In this document: piece by piece, positions 18,531-49,009 of the stretch
Numbering within the stretch: position 1 is the stretch's first letter
Layout: every line of letters starts with the position of its first letter
Source: Alphaproteobacteria bacterium
GTDB lineage: Bacteria > Pseudomonadota > Alphaproteobacteria > CAAGCB01 > CAG-977
Length of the DNA stretch: 58,249 nt
NCBI GenBank assembly: GCA_024407875.1
Contig: JAKSVT010000012.1
Span: 1-58,249, forward strand
Reading direction: 5' to 3'
Notes under the pieces: generated by a model
Database searches by the model: none
What the model was told of the DNA's origin: nothing
What the model saw: only the letters and a program-made list of their open reading frames with translations
Program-made: the position numbers and the translations under genes

Positions 18531-21164
18531 TTATCTAGATTGATGTCTTTGCATTTTTGCTCTAAATAGAGGAACTGATTTAGCGGAAGAACTATTATAA
18601 TTTGCTTTTTCTCTTTCAATAGCCTTACGACGTTCTTCATATTTTTTCTTGAATTCTTCAGTCTTTTGTAAATCACGTTCTTTACGTTTTTCACTAAACT
18701 TAGATGCAATAATATCATAAGCATGAGTTTTGAAGTAACCTGAACTTGCTAAAGAGTTATATAAAGATACAACACGTTTTGGATCACGTTGCTTTTCCTC
18801 TGTTCTTCCTGGACGTACGAAATCTTTTACTTCAGGATTCTTCTCTTTAGAATTTTCATTACCTGCTTGTCTATATCCATTTAATATTTCTGAAATGTCT
18901 TTAAATACAGGAATTTCCTTGATTTCATTTACTTTGATATGCATCTTTGGACGCCAGTTTTTCCAAGGAATTACACTAGCACCACCAGATTCAAATATCT
19001 TTGTATCCTTACCGCCAACTTTAGATTCAGAACGTTGACGTGTACCTGGAATATTGCCCATATAATTTGTTCTGAACATATCAGAGAATGGGAACAATAA
19101 CATAGCTGAATTAGATTGACCTAAATAATCAGCAACAGCTTGTTCATATTTTTCTGGGCAAGAACGTGTATCATGAGCAGGATCTTTTACAGGTTCTGCA
19201 CCTACACGATTCCAACAACCTTTTTCTGTTAAGGCCCAGTTTAATGCACAACGTTGTGATTCATATTGTCTAAATTCCATATCACGTTGAGCTGCAGATT
19301 CATAATATCCAAGGTGTTCCTTTAAATGAACATCTCTAGCTGTCCATTGACTTGCTAATGATGGAGTATCATGAGTAGAAGGAGCTGCTGTTGAATATAA
19401 AGGATATTCTTCAGGATGACGGAATGCATTATTGTTACCACCATTTTGGTAGCCCCACTCACGTTCAAATGGAAGAACACGATATGACAAAATACCATGA
19501 TCCATTAATTTATCTTGGAAGCCAGGAGGTAATTGTCCTAAATCTTCACCAATTAACATACATTTATTACGATTTGATTCTAAAGCTGCAACAGCCATTA
19601 AATCATCTACAGGATAATAAACGAATGCACCTTCTTTAGCAGATTTGCCTTGAGGAATCATATACAAACGGCATAATTGCAATACGTGGTCTAATCTTGT
19701 GCAACCAGCTGTTTTCATGTTGTTTCTTAACATGTTAATGAAAGGTTTGTAACCAGCTTCTTTTAAAGCTTTTGGTTTAAAGCCCATAACATCCCAATTT
19801 TGGCCATTAGGACTTAAAACATCAGCCGGAGCACCAGCGGAAGCCTTCATATAAAGATCTTTGCAACCCCAGCCTTCGAAACCAAATGCTGCAGAACCTA
19901 CGGCGATATCTGTATATAAACCAACTTTCATACCGCTTTCTTTACATGTCTTTTGAACATTTTCCATTTGTTTCAATGTTTCAAATTGTAAATATGTATA
20001 GAAACCAACACGGTCAGAATATTTTTCTGCAAAAGCTTTTACTGTATCAGTATTTGCATCTTGGTATTCTTTTGGCCAATCACGCCAATCTGTCATTTTT
20101 GGTTCTCTACCTGCAAATTTTTCTGATAATGTTTGGAATACAGCAAAATCTTGTAAGTTTTTTCCACCTTCAGCTTTGAATTTCTCAAATTCAGCTTTTC
20201 TTTCAGGAGAAGCGTTCTTTTTGAATTCTTCATAGCATTTTTCTAAAACAGGAGTCTTTAATTCAAATGCTGCTGTATAATCAACATCTGATGCATCTTG
20301 AGTTTTACGTCTTTTCTTTGTGTATTCTTCAGAGTCGTAAAGTTCATTTGCTTCTTTGCTTGTTTTGAATTCAGGAACAGCTGTTACGTCAACATATACG
20401 TGGTTAAAGTAAGTTCTACTTGCTGGTGCATATGGAGAAGCTTCTTCTGGAGCATTAGGGAACATAGCGTGTAATGGGTTAACACCTAAAATGCCAGCAC
20501 CATGTTTACCAATTGTATCAGCAATTTCAGCTAAGTCAGAAAAGTCACCAATACCTTGGTTTTCATCAGATCTTTGTTCATATAATTGAACAGGAACACC
20601 CCAAGCTTTGCCGCCATTTTTGATGTCAATCGGATCATAACATTTTGTTGGAGCATAAATCATTTCTGTTGATGCTTCTTTTTGACCAGGAATCTTAACT
20701 TTTAAATTGTGGTAACCAATGTCCATATCAGCATTTATTTCAAATGCGCGGCGTTCGTATGTGACACCATTAATTTCTCGTCTCATTGGTTGTCCATCAA
20801 CACCAATGCAGATTTGTGTGTCAGAAACTTTTACAGCTCCATCAGCTTTCCCACCGTTTTCTTGGTTTACGGTCCAATTTAATTCTTCATTTTCATGTCC
20901 AACAGGTACAACAAATTCTACTTTGTTTTCTCTATCTTTACGTAAAACGCATACAGGAGGAAGTGGCTCTTTGTATTGTTCGTCTAAAGCATTGTTTAAT
21001 GTGTTGCTAATTACAGCTGAATATGCTTGATCAGACATATCGCCTTGTGGTTGCAACATATCCATAGCTACCAACAAAGATTGTTTGTTTTCTATGGTTG
21101 CTGATTCTTCGATACCTGCCAATTTTGAAAGTAAATGTAATTCGTATTGGTTTAAGATAGCCAT
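18531..21164 (-). CDS. Second 4-alpha-glucanotransferase (GH77) with charged C-terminal extension
   Basis: GH77 enzyme of 877 residues, convergent to the glgE operon. An N-terminal beta region (1-180) precedes the barrel (AWGVPVQLYEQRSDENQGIGD). Catalytic residues are intact: D492 (TRLDHVLQ), E540 (IGEDLG) and D599 (STHDTPS). The GH77 fold appears to end around residue 720. About 150 further residues follow, rich in Lys, Glu and Arg and probably helical/coiled-coil (for example RKERDLQKTEEFKKKYEE), ending in a basic tail. It likely acts on the same glucan pool as MalQ; the extension might serve for anchoring or partner binding, which is inference. It is transcribed alone from the spacer at 21165-21273. 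Confidence 0.92.
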   Translation of the reverse strand: MAILNQYELHLLSKLAGIEESATIENKQSLLVAMDMLQPQGDMSDQAYSAVISNTLNNALDEQYKEPLPPVCVLRKDRENKVEFVVPVGHENEELNWTVNQENGGKADGAVKVSDTQICIGVDGQPMRREINGVTYERRAFEINADMDIGYHNLKVKIPGQKEASTEMIYAPTKCYDPIDIKNGGKAWGVPVQLYEQRSDENQGIGDFSDLAEIADTIGKHGAGILGVNPLHAMFPNAPEEASPYAPASRTYFNHVYVDVTAVPEFKTSKEANELYDSEEYTKKRRKTQDASDVDYTAAFELKTPVLEKCYEEFKKNASPERKAEFEKFKAEGGKNLQDFAVFQTLSEKFAGREPKMTDWRDWPKEYQDANTDTVKAFAEKYSDRVGFYTYLQFETLKQMENVQKTCKESGMKVGLYTDIAVGSAAFGFEGWGCKDLYMKASAGAPADVLSPNGQNWDVMGFKPKALKEAGYKPFINMLRNNMKTAGCTRLDHVLQLCRLYMIPQGKSAKEGAFVYYPVDDLMAVAALESNRNKCMLIGEDLGQLPPGFQDKLMDHGILSYRVLPFEREWGYQNGGNNNAFRHPEEYPLYSTAAPSTHDTPSLASQWTARDVHLKEHLGYYESAAQRDMEFRQYESQRCALNWALTEKGCWNRVGAEPVKDPAHDTRSCPEKYEQAVADYLGQSNSAMLLFPFSDMFRTNYMGNIPGTRQRSESKVGGKDTKIFESGGASVIPWKNWRPKMHIKVNEIKEIPVFKDISEILNGYRQAGNENSKEKNPEVKDFVRPGRTEEKQRDPKRVVSLYNSLASSGYFKTHAYDIIASKFSEKRKERDLQKTEEFKKKYEERRKAIEREKANYNSSSAKSVPLFRAKMQRHQSR

Positions 21165-22824: not shown

Positions 22825-23286
22825 ATGCAAACATTATCAGTAAAGCCAGCAAATATCCAAAAGAAATGGTATCTTATTGATGCTGAAGATTTGGTATTAG
22901 GTCGTTTGGCAAGTATCGTTGCAAAAATTTTGCGCGGTAAAAATAAAACATATTTCACACCAAACATGGATTGTGGAGATTATGTTGTTATCATTAATGC
23001 AGAAAAAGTTGCATTAACAGGTAGAAAATTAGAAGACAAAGTTTACTATCGTCATACAGGTCATCCAGGTGGAATTAAATCTGTAACAGCTGGTAAAGTA
23101 TTAGAAGGTGCTCATCCTGAAAGAGTTATCATTAAAGCTGTTGAACGTATGATTACACGTAACCCATTAGGTCGTAAACAAATGACAAATTTACGTGTAT
23201 ATGCTGGTAAAGATCATCCACATGCTGCACAAAATCCAGAATTTTTGGATGTTGCTGCAATGAACAAAAAGAATAAGAGAGGCTAA
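22825..23286 (+). CDS. rplM: 50S ribosomal protein L13
   Basis: Large-subunit ribosomal protein L13, 153 residues (usual length). The family pattern is clear: [17 protein letters not shown] near the start, the [19 protein letters not shown]-like block (here VVIINAEK), [10 protein letters not shown] and [12 protein letters not shown]. It sits directly before rpsI with two bases between them, the universal L13-S9 pair. Codon use is more regular than in neighbouring hypothetical genes, as expected for high expression. Confidence 0.99.
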
Positions 23287-23288
23287 TT

Positions 23289-23765
23289 ATGGCTGAAGTA
23301 AAATCTTTCGAAGAATTAAAAAATATTGCAACAGTTGCTGAAGCAACACCAGTAGTTCGTGAACCAAAGCGTGATAAATTTGGTCGTGCATATGCTACAG
23401 GTCGTCGTAAAGATGCTTCTGCTCGTGTATGGTTGAAAGCTGGTACAGGTAAAATCATTGTAAATGATAAAGATCAAACAGAATATTTCACACGTCCAGT
23501 ATTACGTATGTTGATTAATCAACCATTTGCTGTTACAAACCGTGAAGGTCAATTTGACGTTGTTGTAACTGTATGTGGTGGTGGTTTATCAGGTCAAGCT
23601 GGTGCTGTTCGTCATGGAATTAGCCGTTGCTTAGACAACTATGAACCAGAATTACACTCAGCATTAAAGCATGCAGGATTCTTAACACGTGATCCTCGTG
23701 TTGTTGAACGTAAAAAATACGGTAAAGCAAAAGCTCGTCGTAGCTACCAATTCAGCAAACGTTAA
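23289..23765 (+). CDS. rpsI: 30S ribosomal protein S9
   Basis: Small-subunit protein S9 (158 residues). The core runs from [16 protein letters not shown] to the C-terminal RRSYQFSKR, whose terminal Arg contacts the P-site tRNA. About 28 extra residues precede the core, a feature I associate with alphaproteobacterial S9 proteins. It is co-transcribed with rplM and followed by a strong terminator. Confidence 0.99.
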
Positions 23766-23790
23766 TTTGTTTTATCAGATTTACGAAAAA

Positions 23791-23821
23791 GGGGGTTGTC
23801 AATTGGCAACCTCTTTTTTTT
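23791..23821 (+). terminator. Rho-independent terminator of rplM-rpsI
   Basis: Stem GGTTGTC with GGCAACC (one G-T pair) flanks an AATT loop and is followed by CTC and eight T, 30 bases after the rpsI stop. Confidence 0.9.
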
Positions 23822-23823
23822 GC

Positions 23824-23860
23824 TTATAAAAAAGAAACAGCGGAAAAATTCCGCTGTTTC
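23824..23860 (-). terminator. Rho-independent terminator of the rubrerythrin operon
   Basis: A perfect 11-bp stem (23834-23844 with 23850-23860, loop of 5) is followed on the minus strand by a T-rich run. It ends the minus-strand operon whose last gene stops at 23877. Confidence 0.9.
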
Positions 23861-23876
23861 TGTGTTAAAAAATGTT

Positions 23877-25040
23877 TTATTTACATAAAGCTTCAACAAA
23901 TTTATTGAAAGTTTCTTCATTTTCTTTTTTATAGGCCGATTTGATAGTCAAAATAGGATCAATAAATGTGATATTTTTTAAAGATTCTAATTCGGCTTTC
24001 ATTTTTTTTGCAGCCATAGGAGCCCATGAACCATTTTCAATTAAAGCAATAGTTCTATTTTGATACGTTTTTGCTTTCAAATGAGAAATAAATGTTTCCA
24101 TTTGAGGAAAAATTCCTGCATCATATGTAGTTGTAGCAAGAACTAGTCTATCATAGCGGAAAGCATCTTCTAAAGCTTCAGCCATATCTTCTCTTGCTAA
24201 ATCTGTAATAGAAACTTTTTGTCCCTTTGCTTCTAAAGCAATTTTTAATTTTTCAGCAACAGCTTTTGTATGACCATAAACAGATGTATAGGCTATAAAT
24301 ATGCCTTTATCTTCAGGTGTATAACTACTCCAAATATCATATTTGTTGATATAATATCCAAGATTTTCAGTTAACATAGGCCCATGTAAAGGAAATATTT
24401 TTTGAATATCTAATGATGCTGCTTTCTTTAATAGCAATTGTACTTGTCCGCCGTATTTGCCAACGATGTTAATGTAATAACGTCTAGCTTCACAAGTCCA
24501 ATCTTCATCTGTATCCAAAGCTCCAAATTTTCCAAAACCATCAGCAGAAAACAAAACTTTATCTGTTTCTTCATATGCTACCATAACTTCTGGCCAATGT
24601 ACCATTGGAGCAAATACGAAATGTAAAGTGTGTTTACCTAAAGATAAAGTATCATTTTCTTTAACTTCAATTGTTTTGCCTTCTAAAGGAAGATCTTCGA
24701 AAAATTGTCCCATCATATTAAAAGCTTTAATGTTTGAAACAACTTTACAAGAAGGATATTTCTTTAAAAATGCATCTAAACTTCCGGCATGATCAGGTTC
24801 CATATGCAGAACTACTAAATAATCAGGATTTTTATTATTTAAAGTTTTTTCCAAATTAGCTAACCATTCTTTTGTCATTCTGCTGTCTACTGTATCCATA
24901 ATACAGATTTTATTATCCATTATGACATAAGAGTTGTAAGATACGCCGTTTGGAACGACATATTGACCTTCAAATAAATCAATGGTCTTATCATCAACGC
25001 CAATATAATAAATGTTGTTTGCTAATAAATTGTTTTCCAT
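23877..25040 (-). CDS. A-type flavodiiron protein (FprA/ROO-like)
   Basis: Reduces O2 (or NO) to water (or N2O) using electrons from rubredoxin. The N-terminal metallo-beta-lactamase-like domain keeps the full diiron ligand set: H79, E81, D83 and H84 in HMEPDH, H148, D167 and H219. A C-terminal flavodoxin domain (about 247-387) starts with FIAYTSVYGHTKA, the FMN loop. The ATG at 25040 gives 387 residues; an in-frame TTG at 25067 lies inside the upstream gene and is not preferred. The start overlaps the end of the rubredoxin fusion gene by nothing but sits 13 bases after it, so the two are co-translated or nearly so. This is typical of anaerobes meeting oxygen. Confidence 0.95.
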   Translation of the reverse strand: MENNLLANNIYYIGVDDKTIDLFEGQYVVPNGVSYNSYVIMDNKICIMDTVDSRMTKEWLANLEKTLNNKNPDYLVVLHMEPDHAGSLDAFLKKYPSCKVVSNIKAFNMMGQFFEDLPLEGKTIEVKENDTLSLGKHTLHFVFAPMVHWPEVMVAYEETDKVLFSADGFGKFGALDTDEDWTCEARRYYINIVGKYGGQVQLLLKKAASLDIQKIFPLHGPMLTENLGYYINKYDIWSSYTPEDKGIFIAYTSVYGHTKAVAEKLKIALEAKGQKVSITDLAREDMAEALEDAFRYDRLVLATTTYDAGIFPQMETFISHLKAKTYQNRTIALIENGSWAPMAAKKMKAELESLKNITFIDPILTIKSAYKKENEETFNKFVEALCK

Positions 25041-25053
25041 TTTGTTGTAAGCC

Positions 25054-25665
25054 TTATTGTTTAACAAATTCTGACTTTCCTACGCCACACAAAGGACATA
25101 CCCAGTCTTGAGGTAGTTCTTCAAAAGGAATTTCTCCATCATATATATAACCACAAACTCTGCAAACCCATTTCTCGTTTGATGACGTTGAAGGTTTGCT
25201 TTTTTGCTTTCGCTGTTGATAGTTTGCATAAATTAATGGAGCTTCAGTATTTTGTTTTTTTGCTTCATTTACATTACATATAAATAAGTAATGTGTTGCT
25301 GTTTCTTGAATGCTTGCAACATTTAATGTCATAACAGACACAGCTTCATCTAAAACAGGAAGATTTTCTTCTAAATGATATTTCATGTTAGACCATTTAT
25401 CTTCAGTTCTAGAGGATTTCATTCCAAATGTAGCAATAATTTCATCAGAAACTTTTTCTGATAATACAGAAAGAGTAAGTTTCTTTGATTTTAAAAGAGT
25501 TTCACATGTATATGATTGTTTGCCTAGAGAAATCATAATTTGAGCAGGTGATACTTCTAAAACCATAACAGCATCAATACAGCTGCCAACAAGACGATTA
25601 TTATCATCTTTGGCACCTGTAATGTAAACGCCATGAGATATTTTAAAAAGGGCGTCTAAATCCAT
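25054..25665 (-). CDS. High-molecular-weight rubredoxin (flavin reductase-rubredoxin fusion)
   Basis: A 203-residue fusion. Residues 1-155 form an FMN-binding flavin reductase-like domain ([18 protein letters not shown], later [17 protein letters not shown]). A short Ser/Lys-rich linker leads to a rubredoxin domain (about 166-203) with C168, C171, C190 and C193 in [12 protein letters not shown] and [14 protein letters not shown]. Proteins of this design pass electrons from NAD(P)H systems to flavodiiron proteins. It sits directly upstream of the flavodiiron gene and downstream of rubrerythrin, supporting that role. Confidence 0.94.
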
Positions 25666-25685
25666 ATATTTTACCTCGTTTAATC

Positions 25686-26231
25686 TTATTTAAAATAACG
25701 CTTTAATAAAGCTTCTAAGGCTTTGCCATGACGAGCTTCATCTCTGGCCATTTCATGTACAGAATCATGAATAGCATCCAAATTTAAAGCTTTTGCTTTT
25801 GTTGCAATTTCAGTCTTACTTTTGCAAGCACCATTTTCACCAGCTAACATTTTCTCTATGTTTGCTTTCGTTGATGTAGATACTAATTCACCTAACATTT
25901 CACAAAAACGAGCAGCATGTTCAGCTTCTTCATGAGCAATTTTATCTAAAGCTAATGAAATTTCTGGATAACCTTCACGTAAAGCTTGGCGTGACATAGC
26001 TAAATACATTCCAACTTCTGTGCATTCTCCATTGAAATGATTCTTTAAACCTTGTAGTATTTCTGCATCTACGCCTTTTGCTACACCAACTGTATGTTCA
26101 GATTCCCAAATTAATCCTGTTTCTTCATAAGGAACAATTTTTTCTCCAGTAGCCTTACATACAGGACATACTATAGGTTGACCTTCAGGAATATCAAAAA
26201 CTTGACCGCATACTAAACATTTATATTTCAT
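25686..26231 (-). CDS. Rubrerythrin with N-terminal rubredoxin domain (reverse rubrerythrin)
   Basis: A 181-residue peroxide reductase. The rubredoxin-type FeS4 site comes first (C5, C8, C22, C25: [10 protein letters not shown] and [12 protein letters not shown]). The four-helix diiron domain follows (about 55-180), with the Glu/His motifs [19 protein letters not shown] and [10 protein letters not shown]. This domain order is reversed relative to classical rubrerythrin. It is the first gene of the minus-strand operon with the rubredoxin fusion and the flavodiiron protein, 20 bases before the next gene. A strong AGGAGG ribosome site is present. Confidence 0.95.
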
Positions 26232-26584
26232 AATTTTCCTCCTAAAAAAATGTAATTAGATTAAGATCACGATATAATTATGGATATAATTTTTGTTCTA
26301 TTTCAAATTTTTTATTTTTTTTGAAAAAAATAATTTTATTGATTTTTTTCTTAATTTTATAGATGACTTTTTTGTTGTTTTTTATAAAAATTTTTTTGTT
26401 TTTCTTTTGAAAATATTTTTATTTTTTTTGTGTAATAAGTTTAGGATATTTAAGTTCTTCTACTATATTTGTTATTTGTTTCTTTTAAATAATTTTTAAC
26501 TAAAAAATTGACAAAAATTATTGACAAAAATATAAAAAGATACCATTATCAAGTAAAGATTTTTATTAGAAGGATTCTGTAACC
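26232..26584. other. 353-base divergent spacer, extremely AT-rich
   Basis: Lies between the divergent rubrerythrin operon and the HExxH gene cluster. The middle (about 26290-26500) is almost pure A/T with long T-runs. It holds the plus-strand promoter at 26509-26536. A plausible but weak minus-strand promoter lies upstream of rubrerythrin (AT-rich -10-like ATTATAT near 26265-26280). A 68-codon open frame here is Phe-rich and treated as chance. Confidence 0.6.
26509..26536 (+). promoter_or_regulatory. Promoter of the HExxH cluster, with duplicated TTGACA box
   Basis: TTGACA (26509-26514), 16-base spacer, TATAAA (26531-26536), 48 bases before the first ATG. A second copy of the box lies at 26521-26526, inside a tandem repeat ATTGACAAAAAT (12-base period), so alternative use or a factor site is possible. 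Confidence 0.65.
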
Positions 26585-27619
26585 ATGTCTAGTGAATTAA
26601 ATTCGATATTTGAAAAGAAACATAAACCGGGTAATAGAGGTAATAATCACGAAGAGATTAAAAAGGCTGATATTCCTTTTAAAATAAGAACAAAGAATCC
26701 TAAAAATGTAAATCGTATGGTAGGTATTATTAATACGATTGCTCAAAATTCCCCTTTTGGTAAAGCCGTTTTGCAAGAAGCTTGTGATAATGGTTATAGT
26801 TTAGCATTCGAAGCTCAAGAGGAATCGTGTGGTTTTTGTGATCCTGAAAATAAAGCTATTGTCTTAAATCCTAGTATGGATAATGATTTGTTAATAGCAA
26901 CGTTGGCTCATGAAGCAAGACATGCTCAACAATTCGTACGCGGTGCTACACAGGAATTTGGAAAATATAATTTAAAAAGTGAACTTATGTATACACGTGC
27001 TACAGAAGCTGATGCAGAAACAGCAGCTTGTGCGACATGTCATGAAATTCGTGTAAATTCAGGTATTGATGGCCCATGGAATGCTTTTGCTGAAGACTCT
27101 GAAGAGATAGCTATGGGATTCGTTAATGCTACAGAAGATGTAAATCAACCAGTTAATGATAATATGTTGCGTGCCGCTTTTAATGGTTGGTATAAAGCAA
27201 CAGATATGGTAGAAGCATACGAAGAAAGTTATATTCAAGATACGATGAAATCAGCAACTAAATATAAGGAAGAAGGTGAATATCCTTATAGTGATTCTAT
27301 TACTTCAGCTGAAATTGTAAAATGCTTCTGCTCAAATGCAAAAGGTGAATGCTTTTGGAATAATAATTTAAATGTTTTAGAAGAACCAGAAAAAGTTGCT
27401 ATGAGTGCAGCAACATTTGATGCTGCTGATAAATACAACAAGATTAGAGAAAATCGTTATGGAACACCAAAGGACGATTCTTATTTAGATTTGCCTGTTA
27501 GAGATCCTCAAAATTTATCTAAAGACTCAAGATATAAAGGAACTAAAACAGCTGGTAATGATAATAGTGCATTTAAGAAAAAACTTAATGCTATGATAGC
27601 TGCAAAGAAACAACGTTAA
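26585..27619 (+). CDS. Putative HExxH metallopeptidase, paralogue 1 of 3
   Basis: A 344-residue protein, first of three tandem paralogues. It contains HEARH (109-113), a zincin HExxH motif, in the context TLAHEARHAQQFVRGA, and EADAE (141-145) 27 residues later, a possible third metal ligand. A CxxC pair (CGFC, 82-85) precedes the motif. No signal peptide or membrane segment is visible, so it is probably cytosolic or exported by another route. The middle has a recurrent FNGWYKATDMVEAYEESY block and the C-terminus is short and basic. I believe this resembles a family described as a putative metallopeptidase of unknown function (DUF6782, from memory). AGAAGGA precedes the ATG. Confidence 0.8.
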   Translation: MSSELNSIFEKKHKPGNRGNNHEEIKKADIPFKIRTKNPKNVNRMVGIINTIAQNSPFGKAVLQEACDNGYSLAFEAQEESCGFCDPENKAIVLNPSMDNDLLIATLAHEARHAQQFVRGATQEFGKYNLKSELMYTRATEADAETAACATCHEIRVNSGIDGPWNAFAEDSEEIAMGFVNATEDVNQPVNDNMLRAAFNGWYKATDMVEAYEESYIQDTMKSATKYKEEGEYPYSDSITSAEIVKCFCSNAKGECFWNNNLNVLEEPEKVAMSAATFDAADKYNKIRENRYGTPKDDSYLDLPVRDPQNLSKDSRYKGTKTAGNDNSAFKKKLNAMIAAKKQR

Positions 27620-27636
27620 TTAATGGAAATAATAGA

Positions 27637-28665
27637 ATGAATATTTTAAATGAAGCTTTAAATACTAATAAAACAGCCTCTTATGATGCATCACAAAAGC
27701 CTGTTGTAGATATCAATATGACAGAGTGTAAAGAAGAAGATAAAGCAAGAATGATAGCTTTAGTAAATCGTTTGTCAAAAAGTCCATGTGGATTAGAAAC
27801 TTTGCAAATTGCTGCTGAAAATGATTTTAAGTTTAGTTTCTTTGAACCTGGTGTTCGTTGTTGCGGTGCTTGTGATGAAGCTGGCCATTGGGTTCGTTTA
27901 AATCCAAATGAATCTGATGATAAATTGGTTGGTACACTTTGTCATGAATGTCGTCATGCTGGACAATTTGTACGTGGTGCACATGAAGCTTTTGGTGTTT
28001 TAGATGTTCGTTCAGAATTGATTTCTTTTAGAGCAATGGAAGCTGATGCTCAAACTTACGCCGTAACTGCATGTAAAGAGTTACAACAATTAGGAGATAA
28101 AGGTCCTTATAGTATTTTCAAAGATCGTTATCCTGAAATTGAAGCTGCTTTTGATAAATCTTTCCAAAAAGAAGGCAAGATTAATCACCAAGTTATGACA
28201 GATACGTTTGAAGGTTGGTATGATCAAAAACGTACAAAGACTGTTTACGAAGAAGCTTATCAAATTGAACCTATGACAAAAGAAATCTATGATTTGATGC
28301 AAGGAAAAGAACCTACATTGTTCTACAATAAGCAAACAATGTCAGGAAAAGAAGCTATTGCTTTAGCTGGTTGGACAAAAGATGGAAATTACTATGTAAA
28401 TGATCCAGATCGTTTAGAAAGTGGTAAGTTCTTAGATGTTGCTGAACAAGCAATGAGTGATATGAAGGATTTCTTCAAATTGCGTAAGCAATTAACAGGA
28501 ATGGAAGCTGATCCAAGTTTGGATAAAATTCCGACTCGTCCAGATACAATGATACGTGAAAGACCAAAGATGGGCGAAAAGCCAATGGCAGGTATGTTCG
28601 AAAAGAAAGAGCAAAAATTAAATCCTGTTATGAATAAATTATTAGCAGCAAGAATGGGCCGTTAA
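27637..28665 (+). CDS. Putative HExxH metallopeptidase, paralogue 2 of 3
   Basis: A 342-residue paralogue of the genes on either side. It has HECRH (103-107) in TLCHECRHAGQFVRGA, EADAQ (135-139) at the same 27-residue spacing as in paralogue 1, and CCGAC (75-79) before the motif. The block FEGWYDQKRTKTVYEEAY matches the corresponding region of both other copies. The C-terminus ends in a basic LLAARMGR tail. It starts 17 bases after paralogue 1, consistent with one operon. No export signal is visible. Its substrate is unknown. Confidence 0.8.
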   Translation: MNILNEALNTNKTASYDASQKPVVDINMTECKEEDKARMIALVNRLSKSPCGLETLQIAAENDFKFSFFEPGVRCCGACDEAGHWVRLNPNESDDKLVGTLCHECRHAGQFVRGAHEAFGVLDVRSELISFRAMEADAQTYAVTACKELQQLGDKGPYSIFKDRYPEIEAAFDKSFQKEGKINHQVMTDTFEGWYDQKRTKTVYEEAYQIEPMTKEIYDLMQGKEPTLFYNKQTMSGKEAIALAGWTKDGNYYVNDPDRLESGKFLDVAEQAMSDMKDFFKLRKQLTGMEADPSLDKIPTRPDTMIRERPKMGEKPMAGMFEKKEQKLNPVMNKLLAARMGR

Positions 28666-28676
28666 GGATAAATATT

Positions 28677-29765
28677 ATGGAAATGTTAAATAAAAGTTTT
28701 TTGCAAGAAGCATTTAGTTCTTCAAATGAAGCAAAATATGATAAAGACGCTAAGTTAGCAATTGATATTGATATCTCTCTTTGTACAGAAGAAGAAACAC
28801 CAAGAATGATTAGTATTATTAATCGTTTATGTAAGTCTGAAGCTGGTAAAGAAACTTTAGAAATTGCTGCAAAATCTGGTTGTAAATTCGGTTTCTTAGA
28901 TACTGCAACAAACTGTTTTGGTTGTTGCTTTAGCGGTGATGATGGCCTTAATGCTATTGGTTTAGGCCCTAGAGCTTCTGATGATAAATTAGTAAGTACA
29001 TTATGCCATGAAGCTCGTCATGCTGGTCAAAATGTTCGTATGGCAGAATATCCTGAACGTGATAAATTAGATGTAGCTTCTATTATTCGTCAGTCAAGAG
29101 CTAAAGAAGCAGATGCTCAAGCATATGCTTTAAAAGCTTGTAAAGAATTAGAATTACAAGGAGATGCTGCTCCTTTAGCAACATTTGGTCAATTTTATCC
29201 ACCTATATATAAAGCTTATGAAAAAGCATGGGCACAAGAAGGCGAAATTAACAACAAATTTGTAGCTGAAGTATTTAAAGGTTGGTATGACCAAACAGGT
29301 ACAAAGCAGAATTACGAAGAAGGTTATATCGTTGAACCTATGCACGATACTCTTGATCAAATTAAAGCTTCAAAAAATGAAGGTAAACCAGTGGATATGA
29401 CTCAAGTGTTTACATTTGAAAACAATATGGATTCTAAGACTGTTGTTGAAAAGATAGGTTGGACTAAAGAAGGAAACTATTTAGCAGGTGAAAATCCTAA
29501 TTTCTTAAATGAAGATAGATTTTTATCAATTGGTGAAAGAACTAAAAAAGATGCTATTGATTTCTTTAATATTCGTAAGGAATTAACAGGTCAAGCAATT
29601 GATGAAACTCCAAAATCAATGCCTACACATGTTGATGCTTTTGCAAGAAGATTACCAGAAATGGGCAAGCCTAGAGATAATGTTGGAGAAACAATGTCTA
29701 TGGGTAATACAATTGAAAGATGGTCTGCTATTTTGGCAGCAAAAGGTAAATCTTTAACAAGATAA
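28677..29765 (+). CDS. Putative HExxH metallopeptidase, paralogue 3 of 3
   Basis: A 362-residue paralogue, closer to paralogue 2 than to paralogue 1 in the N-terminal and C-terminal halves (for example FNIRKELTGQ here and FKLRKQLTGM there). It has HEARH (111-115), EADAQ (144-148) and CFGCC (80-84). The VFKGWYDQTGTKQNYEEGY block is shared. It begins 11 bases after paralogue 2 and is followed by the operon terminator. No signal peptide, membrane segment or other known domain is visible. Confidence 0.8.
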   Translation: MEMLNKSFLQEAFSSSNEAKYDKDAKLAIDIDISLCTEEETPRMISIINRLCKSEAGKETLEIAAKSGCKFGFLDTATNCFGCCFSGDDGLNAIGLGPRASDDKLVSTLCHEARHAGQNVRMAEYPERDKLDVASIIRQSRAKEADAQAYALKACKELELQGDAAPLATFGQFYPPIYKAYEKAWAQEGEINNKFVAEVFKGWYDQTGTKQNYEEGYIVEPMHDTLDQIKASKNEGKPVDMTQVFTFENNMDSKTVVEKIGWTKEGNYLAGENPNFLNEDRFLSIGERTKKDAIDFFNIRKELTGQAIDETPKSMPTHVDAFARRLPEMGKPRDNVGETMSMGNTIERWSAILAAKGKSLTR

Positions 29766-48370: not shown

Positions 48371-49009
48371 ATGAAATATATAAAAATTATTTTGATAGTT
48401 ATTTTTTTTATAGTTTCTGATAATTCTTTTGCAAAGGATTTGTCAGAGTTGGAATATTATAATTTAGTTCATGAATTTTTTAATAAAAAAGCTAAAACTG
48501 AATTTAATTTAGATAAATCTATTCGTCCTACAGCTGAAGTTAAATTTGATTTTAGTGTTCCTACATATGAACAAGTGCCTGTGGTAAATTGTGGTCATGT
48601 TAACGCAGGAGGGTGTACACATTGGAAACACGCTTATCAACTCATGGTTAATTGTTTAGAAAATAAAATTTATATTAGGTATTTTAATTTACCTAATTTT
48701 CCAAAAGTAACTATTTTAGATAGATATGAAATGGGAACTAAAATATTTGATATGACTATTAAACATGAAATGACACATGTTCAGCTTTTTAGAAAGACTT
48801 ATAAAAAGTTAGTTCCAAAGATGGCTGCATTTGCTGTAAAGGAATATGAAGATATGCTAATGAGTGGCAAAAGTTGCAGTGAAATAACTTCAAGTATTAG
48901 TAATTTAATTTCATCATATAGCAAAGAAATAGATTATTATTCAAAACAGCAACAAGATTTAATAGATGGAACGGAACATTATAATTATCAAGCTTTACAA
49001 AATTTATAA
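48371..49009 (+). CDS. Secreted putative zinc protease (DUF922-like)
   Basis: A 212-residue protein with a signal peptide (MKYIKIILIVIFFIVSDNSFA, cleavage near 21). The mature part has a zinc motif HEMTH (132-136) in the context DMTIKHEMTHVQLFRK. The C-terminal block ending DLIDGTEHYNYQ resembles the end of DUF922 predicted secreted Zn-proteases. Four Cys lie in the middle (NCGHVNAGGCTHWK among them). The family call is moderate. It pairs with the upstream secreted protein; together they may act in the periplasm or outside the cell. Confidence 0.75.
   Translation: MKYIKIILIVIFFIVSDNSFAKDLSELEYYNLVHEFFNKKAKTEFNLDKSIRPTAEVKFDFSVPTYEQVPVVNCGHVNAGGCTHWKHAYQLMVNCLENKIYIRYFNLPNFPKVTILDRYEMGTKIFDMTIKHEMTHVQLFRKTYKKLVPKMAAFAVKEYEDMLMSGKSCSEITSSISNLISSYSKEIDYYSKQQQDLIDGTEHYNYQALQNL

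What the first reader, a model, noticed from the sequence alone, without database searches (positions are those of the whole stretch)
26585..29765. Three tandem paralogous HExxH proteins in one operon
Three adjacent genes encode proteins of 344, 342 and 362 residues that share an HExxH motif (HEARH, HECRH, HEARH), a conserved EAD motif 27-28 residues later, a Cys pair about 25 residues before the zinc motif and a GWY...YEE block. None shows a signal peptide. A tandem triplication with conserved catalytic-looking residues but a diverged rest suggests a peptidase family with different substrates or a heteromeric assembly. I know of no described role.
Basis: partly seen in the sequence, partly recalled or inferred. 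Interest (0 to 1): 0.75.

Follow-up and report, generated by a model that had tools for sequence, protein, structure and literature searches.

The report
Zinc-protease family with export-like tails
Three neighbouring genes belong to a little-studied family of probable zinc proteases that this gut or rumen bacterium carries in 24 copies, and almost every copy ends in the same kind of arginine-ending tail, which is also found on unrelated enzymes and looks like an address label for a type IV secretion machine that injects proteins into other cells.

Summary
The three genes are Pfam DUF6782 ("putative metallopeptidase", E 8e-41 to 2e-51). They are not a recent triplication: each has its own orthologues, often in the same array, in related genera. 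The genome (1.77 Mb) has 24 DUF6782 genes; all 12 genomes of its family have 17-34 matches. HExxH and the EAD glutamate are invariant in 66/66 sequences. Two confident AlphaFold models (pLDDT 92) give a zincin-like core. A tail profile finds unrelated proteins with the same ending: LRR, RelA/SpoT-like and HNH-like proteins, adenosine deaminase, one aminopeptidase N paralogue. The last two carry 60-70 extra residues that tail-less relatives lack. Tailed genes lie 3-5 kb from T4SS genes (VirD4-like in 8/8 assessable genomes, giant VirB10 in 3/3). VirD4 and giant VirB10 occur in 12/12 genomes, VirB4 in 11/12. Best explanation: an expanded family of zinc-metallopeptidase effectors exported by a conserved T4SS through a portable C-terminal signal. 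Export, proteolysis, substrates and target cell are inferred; related MAGs come from rumen and horse faeces, so ciliates are one possible target.

The parts
26585..27619 (+). DUF6782 gene 1, 344 aa
   Evidence: PF20573, E 2e-51; AF2 pLDDT 92.3
26585..26626 (+). gene 1 N-terminal low-confidence helix (MSSELNSIFEKK), a weakly shared feature
   Evidence: LxxxF-type motif 67/111 versus 107/524 other ORFs
26909..26923 (+). gene 1 HEARH (residues 109-113)
   Evidence: H, E, H invariant 66/66
27005..27013 (+). gene 1 EAD (141-143), E141 = third zinc-ligand candidate
   Evidence: IrrE spacing for comparison
27563..27616 (+). gene 1 C-terminal tail helix, ...AFKKKLNAMIAAKKQR
   Evidence: low-confidence linker 316-326, helix 327-343
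27637..28665 (+). DUF6782 gene 2, 342 aa
   Evidence: E 8e-49; AF2 pLDDT 92.0
27943..27957 (+). gene 2 HECRH (103-107)
28039..28047 (+). gene 2 EAD (135-137)
28618..28662 (+). gene 2 C-terminal tail, ...PVMNKLLAARMGR
   Evidence: helix 330-341 after a disordered linker
28677..29765 (+). DUF6782 gene 3, 362 aa
   Evidence: E 8e-41
29007..29021 (+). gene 3 HEARH (111-115)
29106..29114 (+). gene 3 EAD (144-146)
29709..29762 (+). gene 3 C-terminal tail, ...WSAILAAKGKSLTR

Best explanation
The three proteins are cytosol-made zinc metallopeptidases of the DUF6782 family (zincin fold, HExxH plus the EAD glutamate) that are exported as effectors by the lineage's conserved VirB/VirD4-type type IV secretion system. 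Each is read as a catalytic core, a short disordered linker, and a basic amphipathic C-terminal tail that ends in Arg; the tail would be the signal recognised by a VirD4-like coupling ATPase. The family has been expanded to about two dozen diverged paralogues per genome so that different substrates in a recipient cell can be cut. Shown by computation: family membership, invariant catalytic residues, zincin-like predicted fold, the expansion, the shared tail, its presence on unrelated proteins, the conserved T4SS and the conserved gene linkage. Inferred: zinc binding and proteolysis, export by this T4SS, and the recipient (rumen or hindgut ciliates or other bacteria).
For: Family: PF20573 E 2e-51, 8e-49, 8e-41. 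Catalysis: H109, E110, H113, E141 invariant in 66/66; H-to-E spacing 28, as in IrrE, whose zinc ligands are His82, His86, Glu113; profile match to IrrE in PDB, E 2e-4; VIA-align best Z 9.2 to Wss1 over 110 residues, and most rows of the list are HExxH enzymes. Expansion: 24 genes here, 17-34 matches in 12/12 family genomes. Tail: R or RG end in 21/24 versus 23/270, net charge of the last 20 residues +4.0 versus +0.5; 93 of 111 lineage proteins have R in the last tail position. Portability: adenosine deaminase has an extra ~65 aa ending in R, or R plus one residue, in 13/13 genomes of this and one related family, while complete deaminases of other alphaproteobacteria end at the domain; aminopeptidase N exists as tailed (~945-969 aa) and tail-less (~890-905 aa) paralogues in the same genomes. 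A profile built only from DUF6782 tails picks LRR, RelA/SpoT-like, HNH-like, HAD and deaminase proteins out of 630 ORFs and HNH/colicin-DNase-like proteins in a relative. T4SS: VirB4 11/12, VirD4 12/12, giant VirB10 (1975-2684 aa) 12/12, with VirB9, VirB11 and VirB2 neighbours. Linkage: tailed PepN 3.0-3.2 kb from a VirD4-like gene in 8/8 genomes where both lie on one contig; deaminase 3.6-5.3 kb from giant VirB10 in 3/3 such genomes. Co-occurrence in the class: DUF6782 with VirB10/TrbI 19/23 versus 101/362; with giant VirB10 9/15 versus 14/370. Arg-rich C-terminal signals are known for Agrobacterium VirB/D4 substrates, 19 residues of VirF being enough (PMC10025392).
Against: No experiment: neither export nor cleavage is shown. 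The tail is a composition and terminal-residue signature, not a sharp motif, and some basic C-termini (a TopA-like protein, an LptF fragment) score by chance. Three of the 24 proteins here lack the terminal Arg. The three window genes are not themselves next to T4SS genes. VirB3, VirB6 and VirB8 were not identified. Foldseek gave no hit at E <= 0.001, and middling Z values are common. An HExxH fold also occurs in an alpha-ketoglutarate-dependent oxygenase (8s5f, Z 7.8). Co-occurrence counts are not corrected for shared ancestry at the genome level.
Confidence: 0.63

Rival explanations
1. The tail targets proteins to some other place or machine (another secretion route, a membrane, an internal shell or the pole) and the T4SS is a coincidence of this lineage.
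For: The tail helix is amphipathic and basic and could bind membranes. Most substrates are not linked to T4SS genes. A weak N-terminal motif is also shared (67/111 versus 107/524).
Against: Tailed PepN and deaminase genes are repeatedly next to T4SS genes. Tails are absent from DUF6782 homologues of several genomes outside the lineage that have only a short, weak VirB10 match. T6SS is present in only 5/12 genomes. The composition fits known T4SS signals.
Confidence: 0.2
2. DUF6782 proteins are internal regulatory or quality-control proteases like IrrE/ImmA or SprT, not effectors.
For: Sequence-level likeness to IrrE and weak SprT-like scores. No signal peptide in genes 1-3.
Against: 24 diverged copies in a 1.77 Mb genome, no HTH domain in the Pfam scan of the three proteins, a tail that is also added to unrelated enzymes, and a distribution that follows giant VirB10.
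Confidence: 0.1
3. Exported, but not peptidases: HExxH serves another metal-dependent reaction such as alpha-ketoglutarate-dependent oxygenation.
For: The HExxH domain of ChlB, an oxygenase, aligns over 158 residues, Z 7.8.
Against: The IrrE-like beta-hairpin plus HExxH and glutamate spacing, and the top match to the Wss1 protease with nearly all other rows peptidases.
Confidence: 0.12
4. The three genes form one heteromeric complex.
For: Operon-like spacing and arrays conserved across genera.
Against: Array size varies from two to four, and many paralogues stand alone.
Confidence: 0.08

Closest known systems
Pfam PF20573 DUF6782, putative metallopeptidase family
   Same: All three proteins match over most of the model, far above the cut-off.
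   Different: No role is attached to the family. The C-terminal tail lies outside the model and is missing in several outgroup members.
Agrobacterium VirB/D4 effectors (VirF, VirE2, VirE3, VirD5)
   Same: Short, basic, Arg-containing C-terminal signal without an N-terminal signal peptide (PMC10025392).
   Different: Here Arg is at the very end, the preceding stretch is Ala/Leu/Lys-rich and helical, and the signal sits on a large paralogous protease family and on copies of housekeeping enzymes.
IrrE/PprI (peptidase family M78)
   Same: Beta-hairpin followed by HExxH and a glutamate about 27-28 residues on.
   Different: No HTH or GAF part; the rest of the fold is a different, mostly helical extension; 24 paralogues with tails.
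SprT/Wss1 minimal zincins
   Same: Best structural match, Z 9.2 over 110 residues.
   Different: Pfam SprT-like score is below cut-off (12 versus 25.6 bits); a larger C-terminal part.
Helicobacter Cag T4SS with its giant VirB10 (CagY)
   Same: A VirB10-domain protein enlarged by repeats; the CagY comparison is from general knowledge.
   Different: The repeats are beta-flower domains (17 stretches); VirB4 sits beside PilO, secretin and TcpQ-like genes.

Membership tests
DUF6782 (PF20573) | score above the curated cut-off of 27 bits | tested here: met
   175, 166.5 and 140.4 bits
Zincin metallopeptidase | zincin-like fold carrying HExxH | tested here: met
   confident AF2 models; VIA matches are mostly zincins, best Z 9.2; Foldseek alone is weak
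Zincin metallopeptidase | conserved third ligand | tested here: met
Zincin metallopeptidase | zinc-dependent proteolysis | not testable with these tools
   needs purified protein
M78 (IrrE/ImmA) | sequence match to the family | tested here: inconclusive
   46-residue profile match to IrrE, E 2e-4; no M78 Pfam hit listed
SprT-like (PF10263) | score above cut-off | tested here: not met
   12 bits versus 25.6
T4SS (VirB/VirD4) effector | genome encodes a T4SS with a coupling protein | tested here: met
   VirB2, B4, B9, B10, B11 and VirD4 found
T4SS (VirB/VirD4) effector | basic C-terminal signal | tested here: met
   21/24 versus 23/270, Fisher 5e-17; portable to PepN and deaminase
T4SS (VirB/VirD4) effector | VirD4-dependent translocation | not testable with these tools
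   needs experiment
BID- or XVIPCD-type effector | BID or XVIPCD domain | tested here: inconclusive
   no such Pfam hit in the three proteins; the tail (~20 residues) is far shorter than XVIPCD (~120)

The most novel reading that the evidence does not exclude
An uncultured rumen/hindgut alphaproteobacterial lineage injects a large effector set (about two dozen zincins plus LRR, RelA/SpoT-like and nuclease-like proteins, and tailed copies of its own aminopeptidase N and adenosine deaminase) into ciliates or other microbes through a T4SS with a giant beta-flower VirB10, using one portable Arg-ending tail.
Probability: 0.4. Interest if true: 0.8.

Novelty: new variant of a known kind. Interest (0 to 1): 0.62.

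Why it matters
It turns a family of unknown role (DUF6782, no paper found in the library by that name) into a testable effector family, gives a simple tail rule for finding the rest of the repertoire, and offers a natural experiment (tailed versus tail-less aminopeptidase N in the same genomes) on how a T4SS signal is acquired. If the target is rumen ciliates, it bears on how bacteria live with or inside them: protozoa-associated communities are enriched in alphaproteobacteria (0.03% to 0.42%, PMC11222294; also PMC6217230).

Tried and rejected
NCBIfam gave nothing; PHROGs gave only weak hits. T6SS as carrier rejected: VipB in 5/12 genomes. Recent triplication rejected by the tree. Cys-pair motif rejected as a family feature. 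The N-terminal motif is enriched but weak. No library paper on DUF6782 or on this lineage's T4SS. Tail-profile hits judged false: TopA-like L248, LptF fragment L131; uncertain: RNase J-like L243:13880-15550 and T4SS-locus gene L156:7847-9091. Foldseek found no hit at E <= 0.001. Genus or species of the window was not established.

Full report
OBSERVATION. The three ORFs are as described: 344, 342 and 362 aa, gaps of 17 and 11 bases, HEARH/HECRH/HEARH, EAD 28, 28 and 29 residues after the second His, GWY...YEE. Identity to gene 1 is 27-28%. The Cys pair is not conserved in the family (C82 20/66, C85 49/66).

FAMILY AND FOLD. All three are Pfam PF20573, DUF6782, 'putative metallopeptidase'. In an alignment of 66 homologues H109, E110, H113, Q116, E141, D143, A144, W202 and Y212 are invariant. 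AlphaFold2 gives confident models of gene 1 (pLDDT 92.3) and gene 2 (92.0): an N-terminal low-confidence helix, a compact core (residues ~30-315 of gene 1), a disordered linker (316-326), and a separate C-terminal helix (327-343). VIA-align ranks Wss1 first (Z 9.2, 110 residues) and most rows are HExxH enzymes, nearly all of them peptidases; Foldseek alone is weak. A profile search of PDB sequences finds IrrE (E 2e-4) across the beta-hairpin and HExxH. IrrE binds zinc by His82, His86 and Glu113 (PMC5552922), a 27-residue spacing against 28 here. One structural match is an HExxH oxygenase, so peptidase chemistry is likely but not certain.

EXPANSION. The genome has 24 DUF6782 genes (26 matches; one gene has two domains and another a degenerate second one) on 14 contigs. 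All 12 genomes of the taxonomic family have 17-34 matches; in the class 23 of 385 have any. A tree puts genes 1, 2 and 3 in three separate, well-supported clades, each with members from several genomes of two or more genera, often in the same array, so the array predates the split of the genera. Related MAGs come from horse faeces and ruminant rumen.

THE TAIL. Of the 24 proteins 21 end in R or RG, against 23 of 270 other ORFs of at least 100 aa from the same stretches (Fisher 5e-17); net charge of the last 20 residues is +4.0 against +0.5. In 111 lineage proteins 93 have R at the last tail position. Shared ancestry could explain this within DUF6782, so unrelated proteins are the real test. 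A tail profile built only from DUF6782 was run over 630 other ORFs from 47% of the genome: 12 reach the 25th percentile of DUF6782 tails. They include adenosine deaminase, two LRR proteins, a RelA/SpoT-domain protein and a HAD hydrolase, and an unassigned protein whose YHHLFPR stretch looks HNH-like to the eye; MalQ in the window is weaker. In a relative, one 9-kb locus with a DUF6782 gene has three further tailed proteins with weak colicin-DNase/HNH matches or an HNH-like stretch. False positives occur and are named under Tried and rejected.

NATURAL EXPERIMENT. Adenosine deaminase carries about 65 extra residues ending in R (once R plus one residue) in all 12 family genomes and in G013 of another family; complete deaminases of other alphaproteobacteria end at the catalytic domain. 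Aminopeptidase N exists as a tailed paralogue (about 945-969 aa, ending GR/ER/DR) and as tail-less paralogues (about 890-905 aa) in the same genomes. The tail is therefore a portable module, not part of the DUF6782 fold. DUF6782 homologues from several genomes outside the lineage with only a short, weak VirB10 match (G227, G246, G146, G327, G110) lack it.

THE MACHINE. VirB4 is found in 11/12 genomes, VirD4-like ATPases in 12/12, and a VirB10 of 1975-2684 aa in 12/12, which in this genome has 17 beta-flower stretches and lies beside VirB9 (CagX plus SPOR) and a VirB11-type ATPase. The VirB4 locus has a VirB2-like pilin and PilO, secretin and TcpQ-like genes. T6SS is in only 5/12. The tailed PepN gene lies 3.0-3.2 kb from a VirD4-like gene in all 8 genomes where both are on one contig, and the deaminase 3.6-5.3 kb from giant VirB10 in all 3 such genomes. 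In the class sample DUF6782 and TrbI/VirB10 co-occur (19/23 versus 101/362), and giant VirB10 even more so (9/15 versus 14/370); these counts ignore shared ancestry, though a rough tally by family (5/6 versus 10/165) keeps the trend.

INTERPRETATION. Arg-rich, positively charged C-terminal signals are known for Agrobacterium VirB/D4 substrates, 19 residues of VirF being enough (PMC10025392). The simplest account is that DUF6782 proteins are T4SS effectors with zincin activity. Steps shown by computation: family, motifs, fold, expansion, tail, portability, T4SS, linkage. Steps inferred: metal binding, cleavage, export, recipient. The recipient could be ciliates (protozoa-associated rumen communities are enriched in alphaproteobacteria; LRR proteins fit a eukaryote) or bacteria (nuclease-like and RelA/SpoT-like proteins fit competitors); the data do not decide.

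Noticed in passing
window 18531-21164 (-): MalQ-like 4-alpha-glucanotransferase (PF02446 match ends at residue 710 of 877) with a long basic C-terminal extension ending ...RAKMQRHQSR: a possible further tailed protein.
   Followed up: partly
L155:9423-16346: Giant VirB10-domain protein of 2307 aa with 17 beta-flower (PF21785) stretches, conserved in all 12 family genomes.
   Followed up: partly
L144:1435-11201: VirB4/VirB2-like genes beside PilO, secretin and TcpQ-like genes, an unusual mix of T4SS and type IVb pilus parts.
   Followed up: no
L127:6168-8093 (-): Three adjacent HNH-like genes, all with the tail, in a DUF6782 locus of the horse-faeces relative.
   Followed up: partly
L238:18048-19487 and L239:66-812: Leucine-rich-repeat proteins with the tail.
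   Followed up: no
L018, L020, L025, L026, L016, L021: A DUF6782 subfamily with a hydrophobic, membrane-spanning-like stretch near the N-terminus; several end in RG rather than R.
   Followed up: no
L126:3911-4912: A DUF6782 gene on a contig filed as Bacteroidales UBA3843: transfer, or a mis-binned contig.
   Followed up: no
window 48371-49009 (+): 212-aa ORF with a hydrophobic N-terminus and an HExxH motif, no Pfam match; not related to DUF6782 as far as tested.
   Followed up: no
window 22825-29765; L172; L092: The DUF6782 array lies a few kb from rplM-rpsI here and in two relatives.
   Followed up: partly
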